DNA of 64,000 bases. Source: Desulfurispirillum indicum S5 (GTDB taxonomy: Bacteria; Chrysiogenota; Chrysiogenetes; Chrysiogenales; Chrysiogenaceae). The position numbers and the translations under genes are program-made. The notes beneath the pieces were generated by a model. It did not search any database. It was not told the DNA's origin and saw only the letters and a program-made list of their open reading frames with translations. Positions 1 to 12,656 of the stretch are shown here, piece after piece. Numbering within the stretch: the stretch's first letter is position 1; every line of letters starts with the position of its first letter. The stretch lies in the NCBI RefSeq assembly GCF_000177635.2, contig NC_014836.1, forward strand, positions 1,121,001 through 1,185,000. Direction: 5' to 3'.

Positions 1-2
1 GG

Positions 3-386
3 CAACAGGCATTTTTGCGAAGGCAGAAAATAAGGGATGAACAACAGCAGCAGCAGGAAGCCGCTCAACAAGCTGCCGTGAAACGTCAGCAACAACGCGA
101 AGCCGAAGCTGCCGCCAAAGCCGCTGAAGCAGAAAAACTGGCCAGCATGGGCGAGGTGGAGCGTACATTGTACGAACTGACGCAGATAACTTTACCCGAC
201 GCCCGTAACAACAAACTCATGGAACTATGGTTAAAAATCGACGGCTACACTACCGAGGAACAACAGACCATTGCCCTTGCCTGTAAACAGGAGTTTATCG
301 CCACCAAGAAGTGGTCGGGAAAATTGAAAGAAAAACAGCAGGCGAAAGTCGACAAGGTCAAGCGGATCCTTGGGGAAACAGATTAG
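3..386 (+). CDS. C-terminal part of an unknown Gln/Ala-rich coiled-coil protein
   Basis: The reading frame is open to the left edge of the window, so the gene probably begins upstream and is seen only in part; a TTG at 15 is the first possible internal start. The visible part begins with a charged stretch rich in Gln, Ala, Glu and Lys (about 45 residues), typical of a helical coiled-coil linker. It then becomes a compact helical segment ending in a lysine-rich tail. The stop lies 6 bases before the ATG of the next gene, so the two are probably cotranscribed. I do not recognise the family. Its position directly before a SAVED-domain gene makes a role in a cyclic-nucleotide defence operon possible, but nothing in the residues proves it. 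Confidence 0.6.
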   Translation, partial: QQAFLRRQKIRDEQQQQQEAAQQAAVKRQQQREAEAAAKAAEAEKLASMGEVERTLYELTQITLPDARNNKLMELWLKIDGYTTEEQQTIALACKQEFIATKKWSGKLKEKQQAKVDKVKRILGETD

Positions 387-782
387 GGTAAAATGGAAAC
401 TTTCCTCTTCATGAACGACCACACCTGGGAAATGGTTGACCGAATTGGTATACTGCTGGGCATCATCATGTTCATACCCGTTGCCTGGGCCAGCATGTTG
501 TATATCAGACGCAACTATCTGAAAAAACGACTTGTTGAAAGAGCCCTTAAACGGGCCAGTACTCACCTTGTGGCCTGTGTGGAGCTGACCGGAAAAAGTG
601 AAATTGCCATCAGTGCCAATGACACCATACACAAGCTGAACTTGCAGGGCACGATTCTGCCCCAGCGCGAATTCCGAAGAAGTGGTGTTGAACTTGCGAA
701 TATGGCAAAAGTGGAAAAGCTGCGCGAAGAACTGGTGCAGTTCAAAAAAGAACTGCAACTGCAAAGCCCCGAGTATATACAC

Positions 783-790
783 CTCTTTTA
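783..790. repeat. Left copy of the 8-bp IS target-site duplication
   Basis: CTCTTTTA immediately left of the IS end; the identical sequence occurs at 2098-2105. Removing the IS and one copy restores an open SAVED reading frame. Confidence 0.9.
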
Positions 791-2097
791 GGTTCATCCG
801 GTTAAAGCGTACTTTGAATTATGGAGGGCCTTTATTCTGAGCTCGAAGAATTCCATATCTCTGTATCCATAGGCTTGCCTTTTGAGGGTATCAATTTTGT
901 TGTTGATCCCCTCAAGTGGTCCTGTTGATATGGGGTGATCATACCAGTTCAGGATTCCCTCTCGGTGCTTCTCCAGCGTTTTGGCCATTTTCTTCAATCC
1001 TTTGATAGCTGATGCTTGAGCCCTGTTGATCCAGTCATCGAGGAATACCGTGGCAGTTACCTTGTCAGTTTGTTGCCATATCTGGCGGAGATCTTCTTTC
1101 ATGTAATAGGCAACCGCCAATGGTCGATTGGCCTGCAGGGCAAGTTCAAGGCGTTCATGATCACTGGTTTGCTCGCCAATGCTCTGCGGATTTTTGAGAA
1201 GCATCCAGCGAGTGCCTTTGAGAATGCTCTTGTCATGCTGACTTGTGAGCTCATGGTACAGCTCGCGGCGAATATCGGTAAGGCGTTCATTCATAAGCTT
1301 GACGACATGGAAACGATCAAACACCAACGCAGCAGATGGAAGGTGTTCGAGCACTGCCGACCGGTAAGCCGGACTCATGTCAGCAGCAACGGCTTTGATA
1401 GATGACTTGCGACGACCAAGGCGTTTCCAGAAACCATCAAGCGCTTCTGCCTGTTTGCCTGCTCCAACGTATACGACCCTGGCTGAACCAAGGTCAATGA
1501 CGAGAGTAATGAAGCCATGTTTGCGTCCTGTGTATTTCTCATCAATGGCGATATACTCAAGCCCAGCAAGTGAAGGGCTACTGTAGTGATGATGCAGATA
1601 CTGCTTGAAAATGGACTTGACCAGGTCCCAGCCTATACCAAGAAGCCGTGCTACATCAATGAGGGTCATAGCTTGGGCAAGGGAGACCACATACCGAGCA
1701 AATGCATGGGTGTAGGAACACCGTGGAGAGGCTATTTTCAGACTCACCCGCCTGACACTACCGCACTGAAGGCACTGGATGCGTGGAACGTGGACGTGCA
1801 ACCAAGTGGACTTGATCCCCAAAGGCAAACCTCGTAACCGACGAATGCTACTGCCGCGTAATATGACAGAACGGCCAAGGCACGCAGGGCAGCGAATCAG
1901 CTTTTTACGGGGCCGGACATGGAAATTGATGGTATTGCCGCAATACTCTGTGCGGATGTAATCGTAGCCAGCAAGGCCGTAGGCATGGTAAAGAACACTG
2001 GTGAGCATGGTGCTTCTCCCGGAATTATTTGGTTGTAATCCCGATAAGTGGCACCATGCTCACTTTTTTGTCAATGTATCCTCAATACGGAAGAGCC
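791..2097 (-). mobile_element. Complete ISL3-family insertion sequence (about 1307 bp)
   Basis: Imperfect terminal inverted repeats match at 14 of 22 positions: 791-812 (starting GGTTCATCCGG) and the complement of 2076-2097 (starting GGCTCTTCCG). The element is flanked by a perfect 8-bp direct repeat CTCTTTTA at 783-790 and 2098-2105, the duplication length known for ISL3 elements. It carries one intact transposase gene whose stop codon (794-796) lies inside the left repeat. The exact duplication and intact transposase indicate a fairly recent insertion. It interrupts the SAVED-domain gene. Confidence 0.93.
794..2008 (-). CDS. tnp: ISL3-family transposase
   Basis: The 404-residue protein has the ISL3 layout: an N-terminal zinc-binding region with cysteine pairs at about C40/C43 and C79/C82, a helix-turn-helix region near residues 110-135, and a DDE catalytic domain. 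Likely catalytic residues are D156 (in IAIDEKYTG), D210 (in AVAADMSPAY) and E366 (in GPLEGINNKID). It starts at ATG 2006-2008, preceded on its strand by GGGAGAAG. It is full length with no frameshift, so transposition competence is plausible. A 13-bp inverted repeat (2001-2013 and 2051-2063) overlaps the start codon and could fold the mRNA over the initiation site. Confidence 0.95.
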   Translation of the reverse strand: MLTSVLYHAYGLAGYDYIRTEYCGNTINFHVRPRKKLIRCPACLGRSVILRGSSIRRLRGLPLGIKSTWLHVHVPRIQCLQCGSVRRVSLKIASPRCSYTHAFARYVVSLAQAMTLIDVARLLGIGWDLVKSIFKQYLHHHYSSPSLAGLEYIAIDEKYTGRKHGFITLVIDLGSARVVYVGAGKQAEALDGFWKRLGRRKSSIKAVAADMSPAYRSAVLEHLPSAALVFDRFHVVKLMNERLTDIRRELYHELTSQHDKSILKGTRWMLLKNPQSIGEQTSDHERLELALQANRPLAVAYYMKEDLRQIWQQTDKVTATVFLDDWINRAQASAIKGLKKMAKTLEKHREGILNWYDHPISTGPLEGINNKIDTLKRQAYGYRDMEFFELRIKALHNSKYALTG

Positions 2098-2105
2098 CTC
2101 TTTTA
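2098..2105. repeat. Right copy of the 8-bp IS target-site duplication
   Basis: CTCTTTTA directly after the right inverted repeat, identical to 783-790. Confidence 0.9.
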
Positions 2106-2217
2106 TTCCGGGCCTGTCGCCATCGCCATAATGCTTGGCGACATCTTTGCGAACTGCAAAAATATAATTGTCTACCACCATGATCGGGGCCGATATTATC
2201 GGAGTGCCGTAATTTAG

Positions 2218-2443
2218 CCCAGGGGTTACCGTTATTGTGACAATACACTGCCAGTGATTTTCAAAAAACGTCACATAAAGACTTCGTAGGCCGTTTTCCA
2301 GGGGTTTGCGAGTTTGTAACTTGTTCTTTAACAAAAGAATATAACTCACTCGGTTATTTTTATATATATTTTATTGCATTTCTGTCCATGTTTGCGAAAA
2401 CAGCCTCTGGAATGCAGCCTGTAAAGGCATCGATGAAGGGGGT
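2218..2443 (+). promoter_or_regulatory. CRISPR leader
   Basis: This gene-free stretch lies between the end of the split SAVED gene and the first perfect repeat. It becomes AT-rich toward the array, with a run of TATAT/TTATT around 2340-2380 and a -10-like TATAAC at 2340-2345. The leader is assigned here because the repeat at the opposite end of the array is degenerate, as expected for the old, leader-distal end, and because the repeats read left to right end in ATTGAGAC, similar to the ATTGAAAC/G handle of many type I/III repeats. I could not fix a -35 box with good spacing. Confidence 0.65.
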
Positions 2444-5400
2444 GACCGAAGACCTGTCGGAAACGACGGGGATTGAGACACTTTTCTCCATATTTTGCCG
2501 AACTTTGCCTTTAAGCGACCGAAGACCTGTCGGAAACGACGGGGATTGAGACGCGTGAGCCTGTTATGCTGGGCTCTGCTTTGTTGACCGAAGACCTGTC
2601 GGAAACGACGGGGATTGAGACACATACTATGGAGTTTGAGAACTTCTTTTATTTCTGACCGAAGACCTGTCGGAAACGACGGGGATTGAGACGGCTACCC
2701 AGTCATAGTCATTAGTTGCCAACATTCTAGGACCGAAGACCTGTCGGAAACGACGGGGATTGAGACTTGGCCATAACCGTCACTTCTGAGAACATTTTCA
2801 GCCGTCGACCGAAGACCTGTCGGAAACGACGGGGATTGAGACTAAAATTTTTTGTGTATATCCCTGCACTGTTTTTTGACCGAAGACCTGTCGGAAACGA
2901 CGGGGATTGAGACGAATTTAAGGAAGTGACATATACGTCATCTTCCGGGACCGAAGACCTGTCGGAAACGACGGGGATTGAGACGACATAAACCACCTCT
3001 CAAAAATTATTTACCTGGGACCGAAGACCTGTCGGAAACGACGGGGATTGAGACCGCGACGGTTGTCGCGTTGCTGTGCTGGAGGGGCACGACCGAAGAC
3101 CTGTCGGAAACGACGGGGATTGAGACGAGAATGTCACTTTCTAGTGAATTTAAGGAAGTGACCGAAGACCTGTCGGAAACGACGGGGATTGAGACGACTT
3201 CGCAATTCCTCCTTTTGGCGAAAGGACTTGTGACCGAAGACCTGTCGGAAACGACGGGGATTGAGACACGACGGCAGTGCCGTCAGTAAGTATAACTTCT
3301 ATACGACCGAAGACCTGTCGGAAACGACGGGGATTGAGACTCACAAACTCCACCGTTGTTAATAGCGTTTACTAACTCGACCGAAGACCTGTCGGAAACG
3401 ACGGGGATTGAGACATCCTGCACTATTACCCAGCGACGACCTTGGATACGTGACCGAAGACCTGTCGGAAACGACGGGGATTGAGACTCTGCTCACAAGT
3501 TGAGCAGGCGTTCCTGCAGTACTGTGTGACCGAAGACCTGTCGGAAACGACGGGGATTGAGACTCTTACAGTCAAACTCCTTGAACATATGCTTTAACGA
3601 CCGAAGACCTGTCGGAAACGACGGGGATTGAGACCCCTTCCCTTTCAAGAAGAATGGGGCCTTCCGACGACCGAAGACCTGTCGGAAACGACGGGGATTG
3701 AGACGCAAATTGGCGTCTTGCAAATAGGCATCTTGTAAATTGACCGAAGACCTGTCGGAAACGACGGGGATTGAGACAGAGATCAAAACCTCCGGATGTT
3801 GTTTCGGAAAGTTCTCGCGACCGAAGACCTGTCGGAAACGACGGGGATTGAGACGGCTTCGCAGTTCCTCCTGGCTCCTGAAGAACTTGTGACCGAAGAC
3901 CTGTCGGAAACGACGGGGATTGAGACCAGTTTAGGGAGCTTTATAACCGGGCTGTGCGCGACCGAAGACCTGTCGGAAACGACGGGGATTGAGACTCATA
4001 GTCCTCACCCGGCTGAGGTTCGCCACCGAGACCGAAGACCTGTCGGAAACGACGGGGATTGAGACATTCCCTGCGGCAGCCCGAAAAACCAGAACCTCCT
4101 CAGACCGAAGACCTGTCGGAAACGACGGGGATTGAGACGTTCAACATAAGATTCTTGATAAGACGTTGTTTGGACCGAAGACCTGTCGGAAACGACGGGG
4201 ATTGAGACGCTTCCTCAGCTCTGCTATGATTGATTCTCGCTGACCGAAGACCTGTCGGAAACGACGGGGATTGAGACGGTTGACGGATTTACCATCAACC
4301 ATGACACATATAGGACCGAAGACCTGTCGGAAACGACGGGGATTGAGACGCCCTCGTCAGAATCGGAATTCGGCTAGTCGCCTTCGACCGAAGACCTGTC
4401 GGAAACGACGGGGATTGAGACAGCGGTGTAACCCAACTCAATGAAATGATTACGGATGACCGAAGACCTGTCGGAAACGACGGGGATTGAGACGCTGCGC
4501 GCCTGTTCCAGTCATGCATCACTCCCGACCGAAGACCTGTCGGAAACGACGGGGATTGAGACTTTGTTAACGACGCCATGGTCGCCAATAACTTCTAGAC
4601 CGAAGACCTGTCGGAAACGACGGGGATTGAGACATGAACAGGGTAACTGTATAGGCCACTAACCACGGTGACCGAAGACCTGTCGGAAACGACGGGGATT
4701 GAGACGTCAAGTATAAATCGTTTCATGCTACACCCCTTTAGACCGAAGACCTGTCGGAAACGACGGGGATTGAGACCAACTTCAGCGCAACTGCGCTGAT
4801 ATCGGCCTGGTTGACCGAAGACCTGTCGGAAACGACGGGGATTGAGACAAGCCACTAGCCACGGTGCCATATCACACGCTCCCATTGCGACCGAAGACCT
4901 GTCGGAAACGACGGGGATTGAGACGTAGGCCAGTAGGCCATTTTTAAAGGGCTGTCCTCAGACCGAAGACCTGTCGGAAACGACGGGGATTGAGACCTGC
5001 CAGTTTTTTCGTCGACCTCCTTAGTTTTGGTATCGACCGAAGACCTGTCGGAAACGACGGGGATTGAGACATACCGGACGACATAAACATCTGATATATA
5101 GTCTGGGACCGAAGACCTGTCGGAAACGACGGGGATTGAGACAACATAAATCACCTCTTGAATATATTTAACTGGGACCGAAGACCTGTCGGAAACGACG
5201 GGGATTGAGACTGGGGTTGCCATCTCCGAAGGCCAGCTTCAACGCAGACCGAAGACCTGTCGGAAACGACGGGGATTGAGACTCGGAGCCGTGCCCATAT
5301 GCTCCGAGCCAGCGCAGACCGAAGACCTGTCGGAAACGACGGGGATTGAGACGATATGTAGTCTTGAAACTTGTCTCTAAACATCATGCACGACCGAAGA

Positions 5401-6359
5401 CCTGTCGGAAACGACGGGGATTGAGACGTACCAGCAGCGTGTGATGGTGATCGTGTCGCTGCCGACCGAAGACCTGTCGGAAACGACGGGGATTGAGACC
5501 TGCCGTTGTTAAATCCACAGTAAACAGCGTTGAATGTGACCGAAGACCTGTCGGAAACGACGGGGATTGAGACGCCTCAAAGATTGCGTGTGGGGTCAGG
5601 TTGATAAGACCGAAGACCTGTCGGAAACGACGAGGATTGAGACCAAAACGACTTTACCTCTCCACTAATTCCATAAAGACCGAAGACCTGTCGGAAACGA
5701 CGGGGATTGAGACCCTTCCAGTATATCCTGGGGACGAGTGCTGTAGTGACCGAAGACCTGTCGGAAACGACGGGGATTGAGACATCTGCTGTCTCCGTAC
5801 CATCTTTTGGAGAGCCACGACCGAAGACCTGTCGGAAACGACGGGGATTGAGACACGCGACGGTTGCCACGTTACTTTTTTGAATGGGTACGACCGAAGA
5901 CCTGTCGGAAACGACGGGGATTGAGACTCAGGGTCAATAGTCGGCACGTTCATTTCAGTTACGACCGAAGACCTGTCGGAAACGACGGGGATTGAGACAG
6001 ACTTGTTGATGCCCTTAATACCCTTAATCTCTTTCGACCGAAGACCTGTCGGAAACGACGGGGATTGAGACCCCGAAGGCGATCTTCAGGGCAACCGCCT
6101 TGAGGCCGGGACCGAAGACCTGTCGGAAACGACGGGGATTGAGACGCCTTTCCAAGTTCTATTGAAACGTGGCGTTTAGTGACCGAAGACCTGTCGGAAA
6201 CGACGGGGATTGAGACAAAGCCGTTGATGATAGCAGGATAATTCGCCATTGACGACCGAAGACCTGTCGGAAACGACGGGGATTGAGACATGCTCAAGAT
6301 ATTCTTCGCACGAAACATATTCCGACCGAAGACCTGCTGGAAACAGCGGGGATTAAAAG
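2444..6359 (+). CRISPR. CRISPR array, 55 repeats of 36 bp and 54 spacers
   Basis: The repeat is 36 bp, starts GACCGAAGACCTGTCGG and ends GGGGATTGAGAC. I count 55 units, the first at 2444-2479 and the last at 6324-6359. Spacers are 33-41 nt. All repeats look identical except number 45 (5608-5643, one G to A in the GGGGAT block) and the last one, which has several changes. The repeat contains a short internal inverted repeat (GTCGGAAACGAC). Transcription is inferred rightward from the 3' ATTGAGAC handle and from decay at the right end. The neighbouring cas1, cas2, CARF-HEPN and Csx20-like genes suggest a type III (or shared) system. Several spacers resemble or overlap one another. Confidence 0.98.
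6324..6359 (+). repeat. Degenerate terminal CRISPR repeat
   Basis: The last repeat keeps the first 13 bases but has a changed centre (CTGCTGGAAACAGCGG instead of CTGTCGGAAACGACGG) and ends ATTAAAAG. The inner inverted repeat is kept by compensating changes (GCTGGAAACAGC), so the hairpin-forming ability survives. It marks the leader-distal end. Confidence 0.9.
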
Positions 6360-6440
6360 TTGTTATTCCCGGCTGGCTTGCAAGTAGTGTAGAATGCTTG
6401 ATTTGATGTGGAATTCCTCAGAACTGTGAATGGAGGTGTC

Positions 6441-7748
6441 ATGGGAAAGTGCTGCATGGTGACCATGCTTGGTACAATTAAAGCTCCAGCTGATCTGAGC
6501 GAGCGAGCGAGTTATGCTTTGTCGGGTGAGCTGGCTAGCTGCTTTTCCCTGCATGGTTCTCAATATTCAAATACATTACCGATTATAGTTAGGCTATCGC
6601 AGGATATAGGATTCTCCTTGGTTCCCATTGCGACCAGGGAAGCTCTGCGAGTGCAAAGGGATGTTCTTGAAGCCGAGGGATTAGATTATTCATGCCTTGA
6701 AGAGGCTGTTATTATTGAAGAAGATGACTTCGAAGCCACTTTCGCGACTATTAATACCATTTTAGGGGCTGCGGATGAGGTCATTCTTGATGTCAGCCAT
6801 GGTTTTCGTCACCTGCCGATTTTGGCAACTGTCAGTATGATTATTCATAATATTACGCACAGTGAGAAAATTCGTCATATCCTGTTTGCCAAAGAGATTG
6901 ATCCGCGCAAACGCTATGAAATTATCGATTTACGAAAGTATCTGGATATTGCCAATGTGACTTATGTGCTTCACACTTTTGATCGCAATTACACGGTTGC
7001 CGCGACTGCCGCTGTTCGCGATGGGCGTTTAACTGAGCTTATTCGACTATTACAGGAGTTCTCTCGGCATATCTTAGCAAATTCTCTGAACTATCTGGTG
7101 CGTGGCAACAACTCTCTGCTGAATCAGATTCGGGAAAGGCTCCAGAGTATTTCCGATTCTGATGATACTCCAAATCAAAGCTTTGGCAGGTTGCTGGAAA
7201 GAGTTGATACTCATATCCAGAAGGTTCAGGATTGCTTGCAGCAAGAAAGAGAGTCTCTTAAATTTTACAGCCTGGCACGGTTATTGGCTGAGCGGGGATA
7301 TCTTCTTAACTCCCTGACTTTACTGCATGAGGCCATTGGGAGCTACACGCTGGAATCCATTAGTGATAAGTCTTTGCGCAGCCATAATCACTATGAGGCA
7401 ACGAAGGCTGCCCGTGATGTGTTTCTACACCCCCAGAAGTGGCACTCCACGCTTAATGACAATCGAAAAAGAAGCCTTCACCCTCTGGTTGAGAATGGTT
7501 ATAAAAACCGAAAGCTCCTTGATGAAAAGTCAGTCAGCGATTTTGCACAACTCGTCAAGGATGTTCAGGCTTTCCGTAATGATTTAGCCCATGGCAATGC
7601 GGAAAACACATATGGCGATACCTATAGTCGGATTGCAAAATTTATCAGGCGATTTGAGGAAGTCTGTATCAAACGCAACATTTTGGCTATACCGTCTGGC
7701 CTGAGTGATGCAGAGAAGCTTCAACGAGGGATGGGGACTCGCCGATGA
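6441..7748 (+). CDS. csx1: CARF-HEPN ribonuclease, Csx1 superfamily (TM1812-like)
   Basis: The N-terminal half (residues 1-190) is a CARF-type Rossmann fold of the TM1812 group, with the signature DVSHGFRHLPIL near residues 117-128 following EVILDVSHG. The C-terminal part is helical and contains FRNDLAHG near residues 378-385, an R-N-D-L-A-H form of the HEPN Rx4-6H ribonuclease motif. In type III systems such proteins bind cyclic oligoadenylate made by Cas10 and degrade RNA. I chose ATG 6441, 4 bases after GGAGG, over a GTG at 6408. The stop overlaps the next gene as ATGA. No Cas10 is visible here, so its activator must come from elsewhere in the genome. Confidence 0.88.
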   Translation: MGKCCMVTMLGTIKAPADLSERASYALSGELASCFSLHGSQYSNTLPIIVRLSQDIGFSLVPIATREALRVQRDVLEAEGLDYSCLEEAVIIEEDDFEATFATINTILGAADEVILDVSHGFRHLPILATVSMIIHNITHSEKIRHILFAKEIDPRKRYEIIDLRKYLDIANVTYVLHTFDRNYTVAATAAVRDGRLTELIRLLQEFSRHILANSLNYLVRGNNSLLNQIRERLQSISDSDDTPNQSFGRLLERVDTHIQKVQDCLQQERESLKFYSLARLLAERGYLLNSLTLLHEAIGSYTLESISDKSLRSHNHYEATKAARDVFLHPQKWHSTLNDNRKRSLHPLVENGYKNRKLLDEKSVSDFAQLVKDVQAFRNDLAHGNAENTYGDTYSRIAKFIRRFEEVCIKRNILAIPSGLSDAEKLQRGMGTRR

Positions 7749-8128
7749 AAACCCTCTACCTCCTCTTCTCCCACCGCCTCACCGCCGAGCAGGAACGCGA
7801 CGCCCGTGCAAGCCTTGGCGTGGTAAGCTTTGTGCCCCTACCACCTGAGCTGCAGCAGCTGTGGAGCAACCTGCCCCCGGAGCTGGAGGATATCCGCCCA
7901 TTGCTGGAACCCGTGAAGCAGTGGCTGACAGCCAACGCCCGTCCCGGCGACATGGCTCTGGTGACAGGTGATTTCGGTGCTACCTGGGATCTGGTGAACT
8001 TCTGCCACTCCACCGGGATTACCCCCCTCTACTCCACCAGCCGCCGGGTTGTGGCGGAGGAGCGGGATGCCGGTGGTGCCGTTGTCAAGAAGAGCCTGTT
8101 TGCCCACGTGCGTTTTCGCCGTTACTGA
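7745..8128 (+). CDS. csx20: Csx20-like CRISPR-associated protein, probable ring nuclease
   Basis: The 127-residue protein begins MKTLYLLFSHRLT, contains LQQLWSNLPPELEDIRPLL and GDFGATWDLVNFC, and ends with HVRFRRY, a pattern I associate with the Csx20 family of type III-linked CARF-fold proteins. Members are reported or predicted to degrade cyclic oligoadenylates and so switch off Csx1-type effectors. The start ATG overlaps the stop of the CARF-HEPN gene (ATGA), so the effector and its likely off-switch are translationally coupled. The assignment rests on remembered family pattern, not on a search. Confidence 0.72.
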   Translation: MKTLYLLFSHRLTAEQERDARASLGVVSFVPLPPELQQLWSNLPPELEDIRPLLEPVKQWLTANARPGDMALVTGDFGATWDLVNFCHSTGITPLYSTSRRVVAEERDAGGAVVKKSLFAHVRFRRY

Positions 8129-8210
8129 GTCTTCTCAATTCAGAAATTTTCCCGAATGACTCTTCATCCACTACGGACTCCATAATCAGTGAAAACACAT
8201 GGAGGCAGCA

Positions 8211-8450
8211 ATGGTACGTCTTGATCTTGATGGCTTCCTTCCCTGGCCTCAGGATAGGGAAGGGATGGATGATTTGTTGCAATCAGTACTCGCAGAGGTG
8301 CAGCACAGCCGTGATTTGACACTTACTGGTAGTCCGCCGTCATGGCTGTCGATGCAGTTGGCCCATCATCTTGGGCAGTACCTGTCAAGTCTCTATTATG
8401 AGTGCCCAATTGCTGGGCTGGTGGAGGTTTTTGATCACAACCCTTTTTAA
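8211..8450 (+). CDS. Small Csx3-like protein (tentative)
   Basis: This 79-residue protein uses ATG 8211, 5 bases after GGAGG, and lies between the Csx20-like gene and cas1 on the same strand. Its second half, LTGSPPSWLSMQLAHHLG followed by a hydrophobic strand and VEVFDHNPF, resembles the Csx3/Crn3 core (S/TG-x-x-P-x-WL-x-x-x-LAHHL ... strand ... H). Csx3 proteins bind or cleave cyclic tetra-adenylate. The N-terminal half is weakly conserved and the protein is shorter than typical Csx3 (about 100 residues or more). It may be a minimal ring nuclease or cOA sponge, a decayed Csx3, or an unrelated small CRISPR-linked protein. Confidence 0.5.
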   Translation: MVRLDLDGFLPWPQDREGMDDLLQSVLAEVQHSRDLTLTGSPPSWLSMQLAHHLGQYLSSLYYECPIAGLVEVFDHNPF

Positions 8451-8473
8451 TATACCCCGATGAGGATGGCAAA

Positions 8474-9475
8474 ATGGCAACAGTCGTTGTTGACGAGCAG
8501 GGTTCCCATATTCAGTACAAGACCAACCAGCTGATTATTACATCGAAAGATGACAATCTGAGCTGGAGTATTCCTAAGATGAATATTGAGCGGTTGCTGA
8601 TTGTTGGGCGCACCACCTTGGCTCAAAGTGCCATGGACTTCTTGCTTGACGCAAGTATTCCCACACATTTTGCTACTACGTCGGGGTGCTATAAAGGGCA
8701 ACTTTGCGGAATGGAAGGAAAAAATGTTTTTGCCCGTATGAAGCAATACGAGCGCTATGCCAATCCAGCGTATCGCAATGGGCTGGCCAGGGTAATTGTG
8801 CGGCAGAAGGTGAATAACCTGCGTTATTTTCTGGCTAAGCATAATCGCTACCATGAGAATCGTGTTATTGAGGATGCGATTGTCCAGATCAAGGCGACAT
8901 TGCAGGGCTTGGACAAAGCCACCAACACAGACGAAATTCGTGGTATTGAGGGAGCCTGTGCTGCCACATACTTTCAGGCGTTTGGGTCGATTTTTGAAGA
9001 CAGAGAATTTCAATTTCGCAAAAGAAGCCGCCGTCCGCCCCTGGATCCCATCAATGCTATGTTGAGTCTTGGATACACAGTGCTCCTCGCGGAGGTCATT
9101 ACAGCATTACAGAGTACTGGGCTTGATGCCTATGTGGGCTATCTGCACAGTGCTGAATATGGGCGTCCTTCACTTGCCTGCGATTTACAGGAAGAGTTTC
9201 GCTTTGTGGTGGATGAGCTTGTGGTCAAACTGGTGAATTTGAAACAGGTGAAAGCTGAGAGCTTTGAATACCAGGAGGATGGTGCAGTTATACTCACAGA
9301 GCCTGCGCGGGAAGTCTTTTACCGGGCTTTCGAACGTAAGATTCGAGGAGGGACGATATACGACGGCAAACGACATTCTTACCGGCGTATTATTCAGCAG
9401 CAGGCGCAAAAGCTCAGCAAGTCTCTGTTTGAAAGCGAACCCTCTTACCAGCCATTTGTGCGGCCTCAGAACTGA
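8474..9475 (+). CDS. cas1: CRISPR integrase Cas1
   Basis: This 333-residue protein carries the metal-binding residues of Cas1 in their usual contexts: E159 in RGIEGACAATYF, H225 in GYLHSAEYGRPSLACDL, and D237/E240 just after. With Cas2 it integrates new spacers at the leader end. The length is normal for a stand-alone Cas1, with no reverse transcriptase or Cas4 fusion. The ATG at 8474 follows GAGGA. It is 23 bases from the small Csx3-like gene and 3 bases from cas2, so the run from csx1 to cas2 is probably one operon. The subtype cannot be read from the residues alone. Confidence 0.96.
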   Translation: MATVVVDEQGSHIQYKTNQLIITSKDDNLSWSIPKMNIERLLIVGRTTLAQSAMDFLLDASIPTHFATTSGCYKGQLCGMEGKNVFARMKQYERYANPAYRNGLARVIVRQKVNNLRYFLAKHNRYHENRVIEDAIVQIKATLQGLDKATNTDEIRGIEGACAATYFQAFGSIFEDREFQFRKRSRRPPLDPINAMLSLGYTVLLAEVITALQSTGLDAYVGYLHSAEYGRPSLACDLQEEFRFVVDELVVKLVNLKQVKAESFEYQEDGAVILTEPAREVFYRAFERKIRGGTIYDGKRHSYRRIIQQQAQKLSKSLFESEPSYQPFVRPQN

Positions 9476-9478
9476 ATC

Positions 9479-9754
9479 ATGATTGTTATTATCGCTTACG
9501 ATATACCCAGTACGAAAAGGCGCACACGCCTGCACAAGGCATTAAAAGGCTATGGTGTGAATGCTCAGCGCAGTGTTTTCGAGTGTGACGTGCAGCCCGA
9601 GCAGATGAAAGGGTTACTGACGATGCTGGAGTTTATGATTGACCCCAGTGAAGACGACTTGCGGGTGTATCCGTTATGTAAAGGATGCCAGGAAAAGGTG
9701 ATGGGTATGGGTATTGGAGATTTTAATCGCAGTGAGGAGATTATTGTAATTTGA
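9479..9754 (+). CDS. cas2: CRISPR adaptation protein Cas2
   Basis: The 91-residue Cas2 begins MIVIIAYDIPSTKRRTRL with the conserved metal-binding D8. It continues with GYGVNAQRSVFEC and a C-terminal LCKGCQEKV pair of cysteines common in one Cas2 group. It bridges Cas1 dimers during spacer integration. It follows cas1 by 3 bases. No cas gene follows directly downstream on this strand. Confidence 0.96.
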   Translation: MIVIIAYDIPSTKRRTRLHKALKGYGVNAQRSVFECDVQPEQMKGLLTMLEFMIDPSEDDLRVYPLCKGCQEKVMGMGIGDFNRSEEIIVI

Positions 9755-9852
9755 ACTATTTTGTTTGATCGATATTTCAGGAATATTCCCGAAACCTTCC
9801 ATGGTGATGTGCTCTGGTACAGTTTCCTTATACTACTTTTAAGGAGCTGTGT

Positions 9853-10449
9853 ATGGGAAGATGTTTCCTCAGGAAATTTATCAGGGCATTTTTGGTAATC
9901 GGGAGTGTGGCGATGGCTGCCAATGCATCACACCTTAGCGAGGGTACGAAATACGGTGGCCTGAGTTATACCATGATGGACTATGACTTGGATGGTGTGT
10001 CCGAGAGCTATTCGCCCGCTGCCTTGACAGGTCGGTTGGGGATTTTTGTGAAGGAGGGCATTGCAGTTGAAGGGCGGCTGGCTCTTGAGATATCAGATGA
10101 CAGCCATTCCTATGATGCAAGTTGGGGTGAAGCCAAGGTGACTCTTGGATTGAAAAGTCTGATAGGTGCTTATGTCATTGGACATGTCCCCCTTGAAAAT
10201 GTTGGTAGTATCTATGGAGTGCTAGGATTTACGAAACTTGAGACCAGCGTGAGGTATCAGGAATATGATAATTCATGGGGATATTACAGTGAAAGTGCGT
10301 CAGAGTCTGACAGCGGGCTTTCCTATGGTTTTGGTTTTGACTGGAAAGTGAGGAGTGATGTTGCGCTGAATATTGAATATATGCTGTATGTTAATGAGTC
10401 AGATTATTCTATGTCCGCGCTGAATATGGGGATTAAGTTTTACTTTTGA
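9853..10449 (+). CDS. Small outer-membrane beta-barrel protein (OmpA-like/opacity type)
   Basis: The 198-residue protein begins with a Sec signal peptide (basic MGRCFLRKFIR, hydrophobic core, cleavage near ANA-S). Alternating polar/aromatic strands follow, and it ends in phenylalanine (NMGIKFYF), typical of a barrel recognised by the BAM machinery. Internal repeats of Gly-aromatic-Gly pattern (YGFGFDWK, YGVLGFTKL) suggest an eight-stranded OmpA-like barrel. It starts after AAGGAG. It sits inside the CRISPR locus but no link to defence can be inferred. A strong hairpin terminator follows. Confidence 0.8.
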   Translation: MGRCFLRKFIRAFLVIGSVAMAANASHLSEGTKYGGLSYTMMDYDLDGVSESYSPAALTGRLGIFVKEGIAVEGRLALEISDDSHSYDASWGEAKVTLGLKSLIGAYVIGHVPLENVGSIYGVLGFTKLETSVRYQEYDNSWGYYSESASESDSGLSYGFGFDWKVRSDVALNIEYMLYVNESDYSMSALNMGIKFYF

Positions 10450-10497
10450 TGGTATATTAGTGGAGTTGTTGAGGGGTTTGTGGGTAGTGTCGTTTAT

Positions 10498-10527
10498 AGC
10501 ACCGTGAAGAGTCATCTTCACGGTGCT
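10498..10527. terminator. Bidirectional hairpin terminator
   Basis: A perfect 13-bp stem (10498-10510 with 10515-10527) and a 4-base loop GTCA lie between two convergent genes. The right arm overlaps the stop region of the Cas2-like gene; a short T run follows on the + strand (10532-10536). Confidence 0.75.
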
Positions 10528-10790
10528 TGAGTTTTTGCCATTCTACTGAGTCCTGTCCCGATGGTAATAACTTGCTGTTCACAATAAGGGCATGGGGTGT
10601 AGATGCGTATTTCATCGAGGTCTGGCTCTATCACAAGCTCCAGTGCAGAACGTAATTGTTTTGCCTGCAGGGTGGTTAAATTGCAGGTAACTATATTGTG
10701 ATCTGTTGGAATATGGAAACTTTGCAGTATTCTGATTAGTCGTTCACGGCGTTTTTTTTCAGGAACAAAGCAGGTAATGATGTAATCCAT
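10518..10790 (-). CDS. Cas2-like protein without the conserved aspartate
   Basis: The 90-residue product aligns without gaps for its first 80 residues to the Cas2 at 9479-9754, with about one third identity by eye. Shared features include xxIIxxxxPxxKRRxRL, C36, a run ending in RxY, and the C-x-x-C pair at 67/70. The metal-binding D8 of Cas2 is replaced by phenylalanine (ITCFVPEKKRR). It starts after AGGAGG and is transcribed divergently from the CARF-family candidate gene. It may be a structural or regulatory Cas2 paralogue, part of a second adaptation module, or a decaying copy; the intact frame and good ribosome-binding site argue against simple decay. Confidence 0.7.
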   Translation of the reverse strand: MDYIITCFVPEKKRRERLIRILQSFHIPTDHNIVTCNLTTLQAKQLRSALELVIEPDLDEIRIYTPCPYCEQQVITIGTGLSRMAKTQAP

Positions 10791-10888
10791 GGGTTTCCTC
10801 CTATGATAAGGTATACTGTATATATAACGTTGTCATGCCAGCTCAGGGGTCACAGGATTTTTCCTGAGTGTTTTCACAAGGAGCCTCC
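10791..10888. promoter_or_regulatory. Divergent promoter region of the Cas2-like/CARF-like pair
   Basis: A 98-bp spacer between two divergent starts, with an AT-rich core GTATACTGTATATATAAC near 10811-10828. This core could supply -10 boxes for both strands and includes the palindrome GTATAC. The + gene has AAGGAG and the - gene AGGAGG in place. An operator for a CARF/wHTH regulator is conceivable but unproven. Confidence 0.45.
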
Positions 10889-11770
10889 ATGTCTTCACGT
10901 AATCTCATTATTCAGTCGGGCAATATCTATCAGCCTATGACCATGGGGATTTCCATGGTGCGTGAACGCTGTGAAATCGGCGAGGTATTTGTGTTGACCA
11001 CTTTCTCGCTGGTTCCCGAGATTGACAAACTGCTGAATCGCTTTTTTCCGGATATTCCGCGCCGGATATTTGGCATGTACGTCAGCGCCAAGGGCAGTGC
11101 TTCCGATCAGCGGGAGTACCGCAAGAATGTGGAAAAGGTGTTGCGTCTGGCGGGCGAGAACCCCATCGCCATGATTGCCAGCGGCACCAACTGGATGACC
11201 TGGCACTTTGCCCGGTACCTGGGAGATATGGAGGCGTATACGGTGCGCACCCGCAAGGAGTTTCAGGAGAAATCCTTCCTGCCGGAGAGGGATGCGGTGA
11301 CCGTTGACCCGGCGGGCAATGTGATTCACCACGAGGGGCAGATCTGCGAACTGGTTCCGCTGAACGCCGACTGCCCCAGGCCGCGGCTGGATATTCAGGG
11401 GCGTACCATCCATTTCCTGGATCATCATATAGAGCTGCCTATGCAGCAGGCGGCCATGTATGCCTTCATGGTGGAAAACGGTTGCTATCTGGATATGCGC
11501 GAAGACTACACTCAGGCTTTCAATGATTTCTGCGAGCGCTCATCCCAGTTTGATACGTACCGGGCCATGCTTGATGATGGGAAATCCTTCTATGAGCGTT
11601 TCAAGCAGAATGTTTCCAAAATCAACAGCCATCTGCGCCAGTGCGAAGAGATTGTGCGGCTGCACCTGAGTATAGAAAAGGATGAAGATTCGCCGGTGGA
11701 TGTGTACCGTCTCGGCGTGCTTTCAGACCGCGTGGTGGAGGGCTGGGAGCTGGAGGAGCCGGAAGCGTGA
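10889..11770 (+). CDS. Probable CARF-domain protein with helical C-terminal domain (Csx14/NE0113-like)
   Basis: The 293-residue protein begins with a Rossmann-like strand and loop (NLIIQSGNIYQPMTMGI), a second strand EVFVLTTFSL, and later MIASGTNWMTWHFARYLG. This arrangement resembles CARF domains of the NE0113/Csx14 group, where the loop after strand 1 and the glycine-rich SGTN loop bind cyclic oligoadenylate. The C-terminal part (LPMQQAAMYAFMVENG ... FYERFKQNVSKINSHLRQ) resembles the winged-helix tail of that group. No HEPN or nuclease motif is visible, so a ligand-responsive regulator is the best guess. I chose ATG 10889 after AAGGAG. The family call is an inference from pattern. Confidence 0.5.
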   Translation: MSSRNLIIQSGNIYQPMTMGISMVRERCEIGEVFVLTTFSLVPEIDKLLNRFFPDIPRRIFGMYVSAKGSASDQREYRKNVEKVLRLAGENPIAMIASGTNWMTWHFARYLGDMEAYTVRTRKEFQEKSFLPERDAVTVDPAGNVIHHEGQICELVPLNADCPRPRLDIQGRTIHFLDHHIELPMQQAAMYAFMVENGCYLDMREDYTQAFNDFCERSSQFDTYRAMLDDGKSFYERFKQNVSKINSHLRQCEEIVRLHLSIEKDEDSPVDVYRLGVLSDRVVEGWELEEPEA

Positions 11771-11903
11771 ACCCGATTAAAATAAGTTTATCCGCAGATA
11801 AAGGCGAAAGACTGTGGGGAGCACCGCAGATGAACGCCATGAAACGCCACTAGGATAACGTCGATTTTTTATGCAGAAGGTTCTGTTGTCTTCTGCTGTT
11901 CAA

Positions 11904-12656
11904 TTATACCTGGCCTCGGTGGTACCACTCCTGGGCGTTGCGCCAGAGGATGCGCTCGGCAGCGTCTTCATCCATGGTGCGCGCCACCAGCATGGCGTCT
12001 TCGTCGGTGTAGGGGCGGGGGGCTCTGGTTGAGGGCAGGTCGGTTCCGAAGAGCAGAGCGGCGGGGTTGATGCGGTGGATGCGCTGCAGGGCGTCGGGTA
12101 TGTCGAAGTCCACTCGGCCGAATCCGGTGGCTTTCACCCGGACGCCTTTTTCCACCAGCTGGCACAGCAGATGGAAGCCGTCGCGGCTGAGCCCCAGGTG
12201 ATCGATACTGACGGCGGGCAGGGTGCTGAGGGTACGGTAGAGTTCGCCCAGTTCGCGGCTGTCCACGTAGAGTTCCACATGCCATTTCACCAGCTCGTGG
12301 ATGCGATCGGCCATGGTCTGGAGCTGTTCCAGACTTTCAGAGCCACCCCGGCGCAGATTAAAGCGCACGGCCCGCACGCCGGCGGTGTCCAGGTGCAGGA
12401 TTTCTTCGTCGCTGGTAGTGACGGGGAGCTGAGTAACGCCGACAAAGGCCGGACCAAGCTGTTTCAGGGCGTCCAGCAGGTACTGCTGGTCGAAGGCCTG
12501 GAATGAGCCGGATACGATGGCTCCACCTGCCAGTTCGTAGTTCTGTATGCGTTCCAGGTAGTCGTGACAGGTGAAGGTCGGGGGCAGATACCCCTGGTTG
12601 GGGACGATGGGGAAGCGGGGGTCGATGATGTGCAGGTGGGCGTCGAAGATCTTCAT
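11904..12656 (-). CDS. Amidohydrolase-family TIM-barrel hydrolase (COG3618-like)
   Basis: The 250-residue protein starts MKIFDAHLHIID, the H-x-H metal ligand pair of the amidohydrolase superfamily. It continues with VRAVRFNLRRGG, VSIDHLG and LLFGTDLPST, whose aspartate is the usual C-terminal catalytic residue. This pattern fits 2-pyrone-4,6-dicarboxylate lactonase-like hydrolases; the substrate cannot be predicted. Its start lies 2 bases after the stop of the upstream DJ-1/PfpI gene, so translation is probably coupled. Confidence 0.8.
   Translation of the reverse strand: MKIFDAHLHIIDPRFPIVPNQGYLPPTFTCHDYLERIQNYELAGGAIVSGSFQAFDQQYLLDALKQLGPAFVGVTQLPVTTSDEEILHLDTAGVRAVRFNLRRGGSESLEQLQTMADRIHELVKWHVELYVDSRELGELYRTLSTLPAVSIDHLGLSRDGFHLLCQLVEKGVRVKATGFGRVDFDIPDALQRIHRINPAALLFGTDLPSTRAPRPYTDEDAMLVARTMDEDAAERILWRNAQEWYHRGQV

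What the first reader, a model, noticed from the sequence alone, without database searches (positions are those of the whole stretch)
393..2217. SAVED-domain effector gene inactivated by a recent ISL3 insertion beside a CRISPR array
Deleting the IS and one copy of the 8-bp duplication restores a continuous 169-codon frame whose end (HLFYSGPVAIAIMLG ... VYHHDR) matches the SAVED pattern, preceded by a single membrane helix. SAVED domains sense cyclic nucleotides in CBASS and in some type III CRISPR signalling. A membrane-SAVED gene directly upstream of a CRISPR leader, silenced by a young transposon, may record selection against a toxic immune effector.
Basis: partly seen in the sequence, partly recalled or inferred. 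Interest (0 to 1): 0.78.

Follow-up and report, generated by a model that had tools for sequence, protein, structure and literature searches.

The report
Transposon-broken CRISPR membrane defence gene
A bacterium's type III CRISPR operon ends in a small membrane-protein gene that probably shuts down infected cells, and a recently arrived jumping gene has cut it in two; intact copies survive in related bacteria, so the break is a local loss, and the gene itself belongs to a listed family that I found no experiments on.

Summary
A 1307-bp ISL3 element (791-2097) with a perfect 8-bp duplication (CTCTTTTA) splits one gene (393-790 and 2106-2217). An uninterrupted allele (169 aa, 81% identical over the 5' piece) sits at the same place in a genome of the same family, and a third copy in the same phylum. 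The IS has four identical full copies in the genome, so the insertion is young. The gene is not just beside a CRISPR array: it is the last gene of a complete type III-A operon (cas6-cas10-csm2-5) lying just outside the window. The encoded protein has one N-terminal membrane helix plus a single CARF-like unit matching the C-terminal half of SAVED domains (Pfam above cut-off in intact alleles; AlphaFold model Z 9-12 to Cap4, Cap5, CalpL, SAVED-CHAT, AcrIII-2). Seven intact relatives were found, six in type III loci, often near csx3. Best reading: a cyclic-oligoadenylate-gated membrane effector working like Cam1/Cap1, lost here while Cas10 and Csx1 look intact. The family is already in PADLOC (PDLC01160, 'CARF, 2 TMs') but I found no experiments on it. 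'Selection against a toxic effector' is not tested by one insertion.

The parts
3..386 (+). 3' end of csm5, the gene just upstream (begins outside the window)
   Evidence: (L005 16773-18386): Csm5 models, best E 9.8e-27; Pfam RAMPs 1.2e-9
393..790 (+). 5' piece of the membrane/half-SAVED gene: one TM helix (residues ~18-36) and the first part of the CARF-like unit; reads into a TAG (789-791) created at the IS junction
783..790 (.). left copy of the 8-bp target-site duplication CTCTTTTA
791..2097 (.). ISL3-family insertion sequence, 1307 bp; four identical full copies plus one split copy in the genome
794..2008 (-). ISL3 transposase, 404 aa, apparently intact
   Evidence: PF01610 E 3.7e-74, PF13542, PF14690
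2098..2105 (.). right copy of the 8-bp duplication CTCTTTTA
2106..2217 (+). 3' piece of the gene: YSGP...NC..V..YHH signature, C-terminal end of the SAVED-type unit
   Evidence: (PDLC02011 SAVED_TM E 6.4e-11)
2218..2443 (+). leader region of the CRISPR array, partly conserved in G002
   Evidence: 73% identity over 89 bp, the stretch running into the first repeat
2444..6289 (+). CRISPR array: 54 repeats of 36 bp, 53 spacers of 33-41 bp
6408..7748 (+). csx1 (CARF-HEPN) with a R-X4-H motif (RNDLAH)
   Evidence: (PDLC01828 E 5.7e-145)
7745..8128 (+). csx20
   Evidence: NF040559 E 1.3e-45
8199..8450 (+). csx3-like ring-nuclease candidate
   Evidence: PDLC01040 E 1.6e-17
8474..9475 (+). cas1
   Evidence: PF01867 E 2.9e-89
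9479..9754 (+). cas2
   Evidence: PF09827 E 1.3e-21

Best explanation
The split gene is the terminal gene of a type III-A CRISPR operon and encodes a cyclic-oligoadenylate-sensing membrane effector: one N-terminal membrane helix followed by a cytosolic CARF-like unit of SAVED type. In intact relatives, Cas10 that recognises phage RNA would make cyclic oligoadenylate (most likely cA4), which binds an oligomer of the half-SAVED units and opens or distorts a pore formed by the helices, depolarising the membrane and arresting the infected cell, as Cam1 and Cap1 do. In this genome a recent ISL3 insertion removes the last 37 residues, which hold the most conserved sensor motif, so the effector is almost certainly dead, while Cas10, Csm2-5, Csx1, Csx3-like, Csx20, Cas1 and Cas2 look intact. 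Shown: anatomy, homology, operon context, insertion, identity of the IS copies. Inferred: ligand, oligomer, pore, loss of function.
For: Intact orthologue at the same place in G002 and homologue after csm5 in G021. Both exceed the Pfam SAVED cut-off (30.6 and 31.7 vs 26.2 bits); PADLOC SAVED_TM E 3e-17 and 'CARF, 2 TMs' E 1e-13 over nearly the full length. The family profile finds AcrIII-2 (9r8s, 8.7e-9), Cap4 (6vm5, 3.7e-5) and CalpL (9eyi, 4e-5) among solved structures. AlphaFold model, mean pLDDT 80.5, matches SAVED structures with Z 9-12 over residues 55-169. One hydrophobic segment with RR/K on its C-terminal side. Other homologues in type III loci of four further genomes; csx3 is the next gene in G519 and G574 and two genes on in G309. 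Both pieces show low dN/dS against G002, 0.04 and 0.06 (dS saturated). Cas10 keeps HD and GGDD, Csx1 keeps R-X4-H. Mechanism by analogy: Cam1 (PMC10808066), Cap1 (PMC12642688).
Against: No ligand, oligomer or pore was tested; a single half-SAVED must oligomerise to make a pocket, which I could not model. PADLOC names the family 'CARF, 2 TMs' whereas only one TM helix is seen here. One homologue (G431) lies outside a visible type III operon, beside a CARF gene and an SPFH gene. The truncated product might still be made and do something.
Confidence: 0.72

Rival explanations
1. The protein is a membrane-tethered cOA ring nuclease or signal damper rather than an effector: it binds and cuts cA4, as the SAVED proteins CalpL and AcrIII-2 do.
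For: Best solved-structure profile match is AcrIII-2, a cA4-cleaving SAVED protein (PMC12751052).
Against: csx3-like genes, and csx20 in G000, already occur in the same loci, which would make a further damper redundant. AcrIII-2 and CalpL use two-half SAVED domains. A conserved membrane helix is not needed for a nuclease.
Confidence: 0.15
2. The insertion is adaptive: the effector had become costly (self-targeting or autoimmunity) and cells with the disrupted gene were selected, perhaps in culture. This concerns why it was lost and is compatible with the best explanation of what it is.
For: The only lesion noticed in the CRISPR locus is in the effector; toxicity of such effectors is documented (PMC10808066 reports escapers with non-functional plasmids).
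Against: Of the other full IS copies, two (L009, L010) appear to lie mostly in non-coding DNA and one (L012) is nested in IS3-like elements, so the element shows no preference for toxic genes. Csx1, another likely toxic effector, is intact. One event cannot show selection.
Confidence: 0.2
3. The gene is a CBASS membrane-SAVED effector (Cap14-like) that happens to lie next to CRISPR.
For: CBASS Cap14/3TM-SAVED structures are among the fold matches (9om7, 9wq2).
Against: The neighbours upstream are csm genes and none was identified as a CD-NTase; most intact homologues sit in type III operons.
Confidence: 0.03

Closest known systems
PADLOC PDLC01160 'CARF, 2 TMs' and PDLC02011 SAVED4--SAVED_TM
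   Same: Nearly the whole protein aligns: PDLC01160 6-165 of 172 (E 1.3e-13), PDLC02011 116-266 of 278 (E 3e-17)
   Different: Only one membrane helix here; PDLC02011 is about 110 residues longer at its N-terminus
Cam1 (CARF-TM effector, type III, cA4, membrane depolarisation; PMC10808066)
   Same: Similar size (206 aa vs 169), one N-terminal TM helix, cytosolic CARF-like sensor, type III locus; TM part hits PADLOC CARF8_TM (E 8e-6, residues 5-48)
   Different: Sensor is SAVED-type, not CARF8; hhalign between this family and four CARF8-like proteins gives no support
Cap1 (TM1/2-CARFL-DUF4579 pore; PMC12642688)
   Same: Type III-A locus with a Csx3-like ring nuclease, membrane part plus one CARF-like unit
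   Different: Cap1 has two TM helices and a DUF4579 domain; homology not shown
CalpL / AcrIII-2 / Cap4 SAVED domains
   Same: CARF-like unit matches their C-terminal half (Z 8-12)
   Different: These hold two fused halves, with no one-helix membrane part in AcrIII-2 or Cap4
ISL3 family insertion sequences
   Same: Transposase domains, 8-bp duplication, imperfect inverted ends
   Different: Nothing unusual

Membership tests
SAVED domain (PF18145) | Profile match above curated cut-off | tested here: met
   Intact alleles 30.6 and 31.7 bits vs 26.2; the broken allele's 3' piece alone reaches 23.9, below it
SAVED domain (PF18145) | Two fused CARF-like halves | tested here: not met
   Only one unit, residues 55-169, matching mostly the C-terminal half; so it is filed as a half-SAVED, not a full SAVED domain
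Type III CRISPR ancillary effector | Encoded in a type III locus with an active-looking Cas10 | tested here: met
   Operon cas6-cas10(GGDD, HD)-csm2-5-gene
Type III CRISPR ancillary effector | Binds cOA and is toxic when activated | not testable with these tools
   Needs protein and cell work
Cam1 | N-terminal TM helix then a single CARF-like domain | tested here: met
Cam1 | CARF8-type sensor domain homologous to NhCam1 | tested here: inconclusive
   PADLOC CARF8_TM matches only residues 5-48; hhalign with four CARF8-like proteins probability 0.5%; NhCam1 not among the listed fold matches
CBASS Cap14 | CD-NTase in the same operon | tested here: not met
   Neighbours are cas/csm genes
ISL3 IS family | DDE_Tnp_ISL3 transposase, 8-bp target duplication, inverted ends | tested here: met

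The most novel reading that the evidence does not exclude
The family is a living unfused half of the SAVED domain that senses a type III messenger as a homo-oligomer directly joined to a one-helix pore, a link between CARF-type membrane effectors (Cam1) and SAVED proteins; here it is being lost by transposition while the other effector, Csx1, is kept.
Probability: 0.3. Interest if true: 0.55.

Novelty: new member of a known kind. Interest (0 to 1): 0.36.

Why it matters
It places an uncharacterised membrane/half-SAVED family firmly in type III CRISPR signalling, with a natural intact/broken pair in related genomes. It also gives a compact, testable candidate for the simplest SAVED-type sensor and a second design, after Cam1, of a one-helix messenger-gated membrane effector.

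Tried and rejected
Joining the two flanks to search or fold the rejoined protein: not done, replaced by natural intact homologues. The search for related loci in genome contigs returned one locus (the G021 MAG); viral contigs none, and the seven-member alignment was too diverse to scan with. Plasmid and phage tblastn: no match. Profile-profile comparison with CARF8/Cam1-like proteins gave no support. Makarova 2020 (CARF classification) is not held. Rfam: nothing in 1-12000. Viral fold library: no match at E 0.001. No spacer matched the rest of the window. Two searches around G431 and G519 found no new full-length homologues beyond those; their hits in G464 and G512 are weak and partial, as are those in G358, G379 and G580.

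Full report
What is there. The window is bases 1121001-1185000 of a 2,928,377-base single-contig genome. That size is the one published for Desulfurispirillum indicum S5, an environmental anaerobe (PMC3368425, abstract shown); the identification rests on this match of length. An ISL3 element occupies 791-2097, flanked by CTCTTTTA on both sides. The transposase looks intact. Three further full copies and one split copy are identical in sequence; two of the other copies also show clean 8-bp duplications (ATTTTTTT and CAAAAGTG). The element is therefore recently active.

The split gene. The two pieces match successive parts of one family profile and no other place in the genome. The gene is uninterrupted in G002 (same family; 81% identical over the 5' piece, 69% over the 36 residues compared in the 3' piece) and in G021 (same phylum, 43-46%). 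Between G000 and G002 both pieces show dN/dS of 0.04-0.06, although dS is saturated, and no further stop or frameshift was seen in either piece. Purifying selection thus held for most of the divergence and the break is late. I did not rejoin the two pieces; all searches used the pieces apart or intact relatives.

Where it sits. Upstream of the window lie cas6, cas10/csm1 (TIGR02578, E 4e-172, with HD and GGDD motifs), csm2, csm3, csm4 and csm5 (csm4 is named from position and from its near-identity to the gene in G002, as Pfam gave no match). The split gene starts 6 bases after the csm5 stop. Downstream are the leader, an array of 54 repeats, csx1, csx20, a csx3-like gene, cas1 and cas2. G002 has the same order, plus a CARF-adenosine deaminase gene (Cad1-like, PDLC01908 E 3e-175) between csm5 and the membrane gene. 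In G021 the order is csm5, the gene, csx1.

What it encodes. One membrane helix (about residues 18-36), positive charges on its C-terminal side, then a unit of about 115 residues. Intact alleles pass the Pfam SAVED cut-off. A seven-member family profile finds AcrIII-2, Cap4 and CalpL among solved structures. The AlphaFold model (pLDDT 80.5) has one long helix (2-54) and an alpha/beta unit that aligns with SAVED domains of SAVED-CHAT (Z 12.3, 112 residues, rmsd 2.5), Cap5 (11.9), Cap4 (11.7), AcrIII-2 (10.8) and CalpL (10.5), and with CARF domains such as Cad1 (9.7). There is no room for the other SAVED half. The insertion removes the last 37 residues, including two strands, a helix and the conserved GP...N...V..YH motif.

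How widespread. Across the genomes searched, full-length intact homologues turned up in seven: G002, G021, G309, G431, G449, G519, G574 (the search sets overlap). Five lie in operons with type III csm- or cmr-like genes; G519 lies by a gene that looks like an RT-cas1 (not tested), two cas2-like genes and csx3; G431 lies beside a CARF gene and an SPFH gene. csx3 is the next gene in G519 and G574, two genes on in G309, and in the same locus in G000 and G002. Csx3 is known as a cA4 ring nuclease (established knowledge), so cA4 is the likeliest ligand, by inference.

Mechanism. Cam1 (one helix plus CARF, cA4, depolarisation; PMC10808066) and Cap1 (two helices plus CARF-like unit, cA4-opened tetrameric pore; PMC12642688) show how such a layout works. 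I infer the same here. A 2022 review lists transmembrane SAVED effectors as predicted only (PMC9704534). The 2024 effector survey names Cam1-3 and CalpL, and the passages I read do not describe this family (PMC11229360).

Selection or chance. Only the membrane effector is visibly broken; Cas10 and Csx1 keep their motifs. This fits relaxed need for a second effector, a cost of keeping it, or loss in culture. Nothing here separates these.

Novelty. The family is already modelled in PADLOC, so this is a new, damaged member of a known but, as far as I found, uncharacterised kind.

Noticed in passing
L005 14710-17709 (upstream of window) vs L006: csm2-csm5 are 81-99% identical to G002 in 300-base steps, with dS 0.1-0.35, while cas6 and the window's csx1, csx20, cas1 and cas2 have dS above 1: looks like recent exchange of the middle of the operon.
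   Followed up: partly
L006 17326-19509: G002 carries a CARF-adenosine deaminase (Cad1-like) gene between csm5 and the membrane gene; absent in G000 and G021.
   Followed up: partly
window 10518-10790 (-) and 10868-11770 (+): A second Cas2-like gene (PF09827, 25.1 bits) and a 300-aa protein with a weak CARF5 match, both conserved in G002 after cas1-cas2, with an outer-membrane barrel gene (9853-10449) between cas2 and them.
   Followed up: partly
L028 7311-10105 (G431): A homologue lies in a row with an SPFH/Band 7 gene, a small membrane gene and a CARF5 gene, without visible csm genes: possible membrane signalling cassette.
   Followed up: no
L012, L013, L014: Other copies of the ISL3 element lie beside or are split by an IS3-like element, including one copy flanked by inverted copies of it.
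   Followed up: no
window 5608-5643: The only repeat of 54 that departs from the consensus lies inside the array, not at its end.
   Followed up: no
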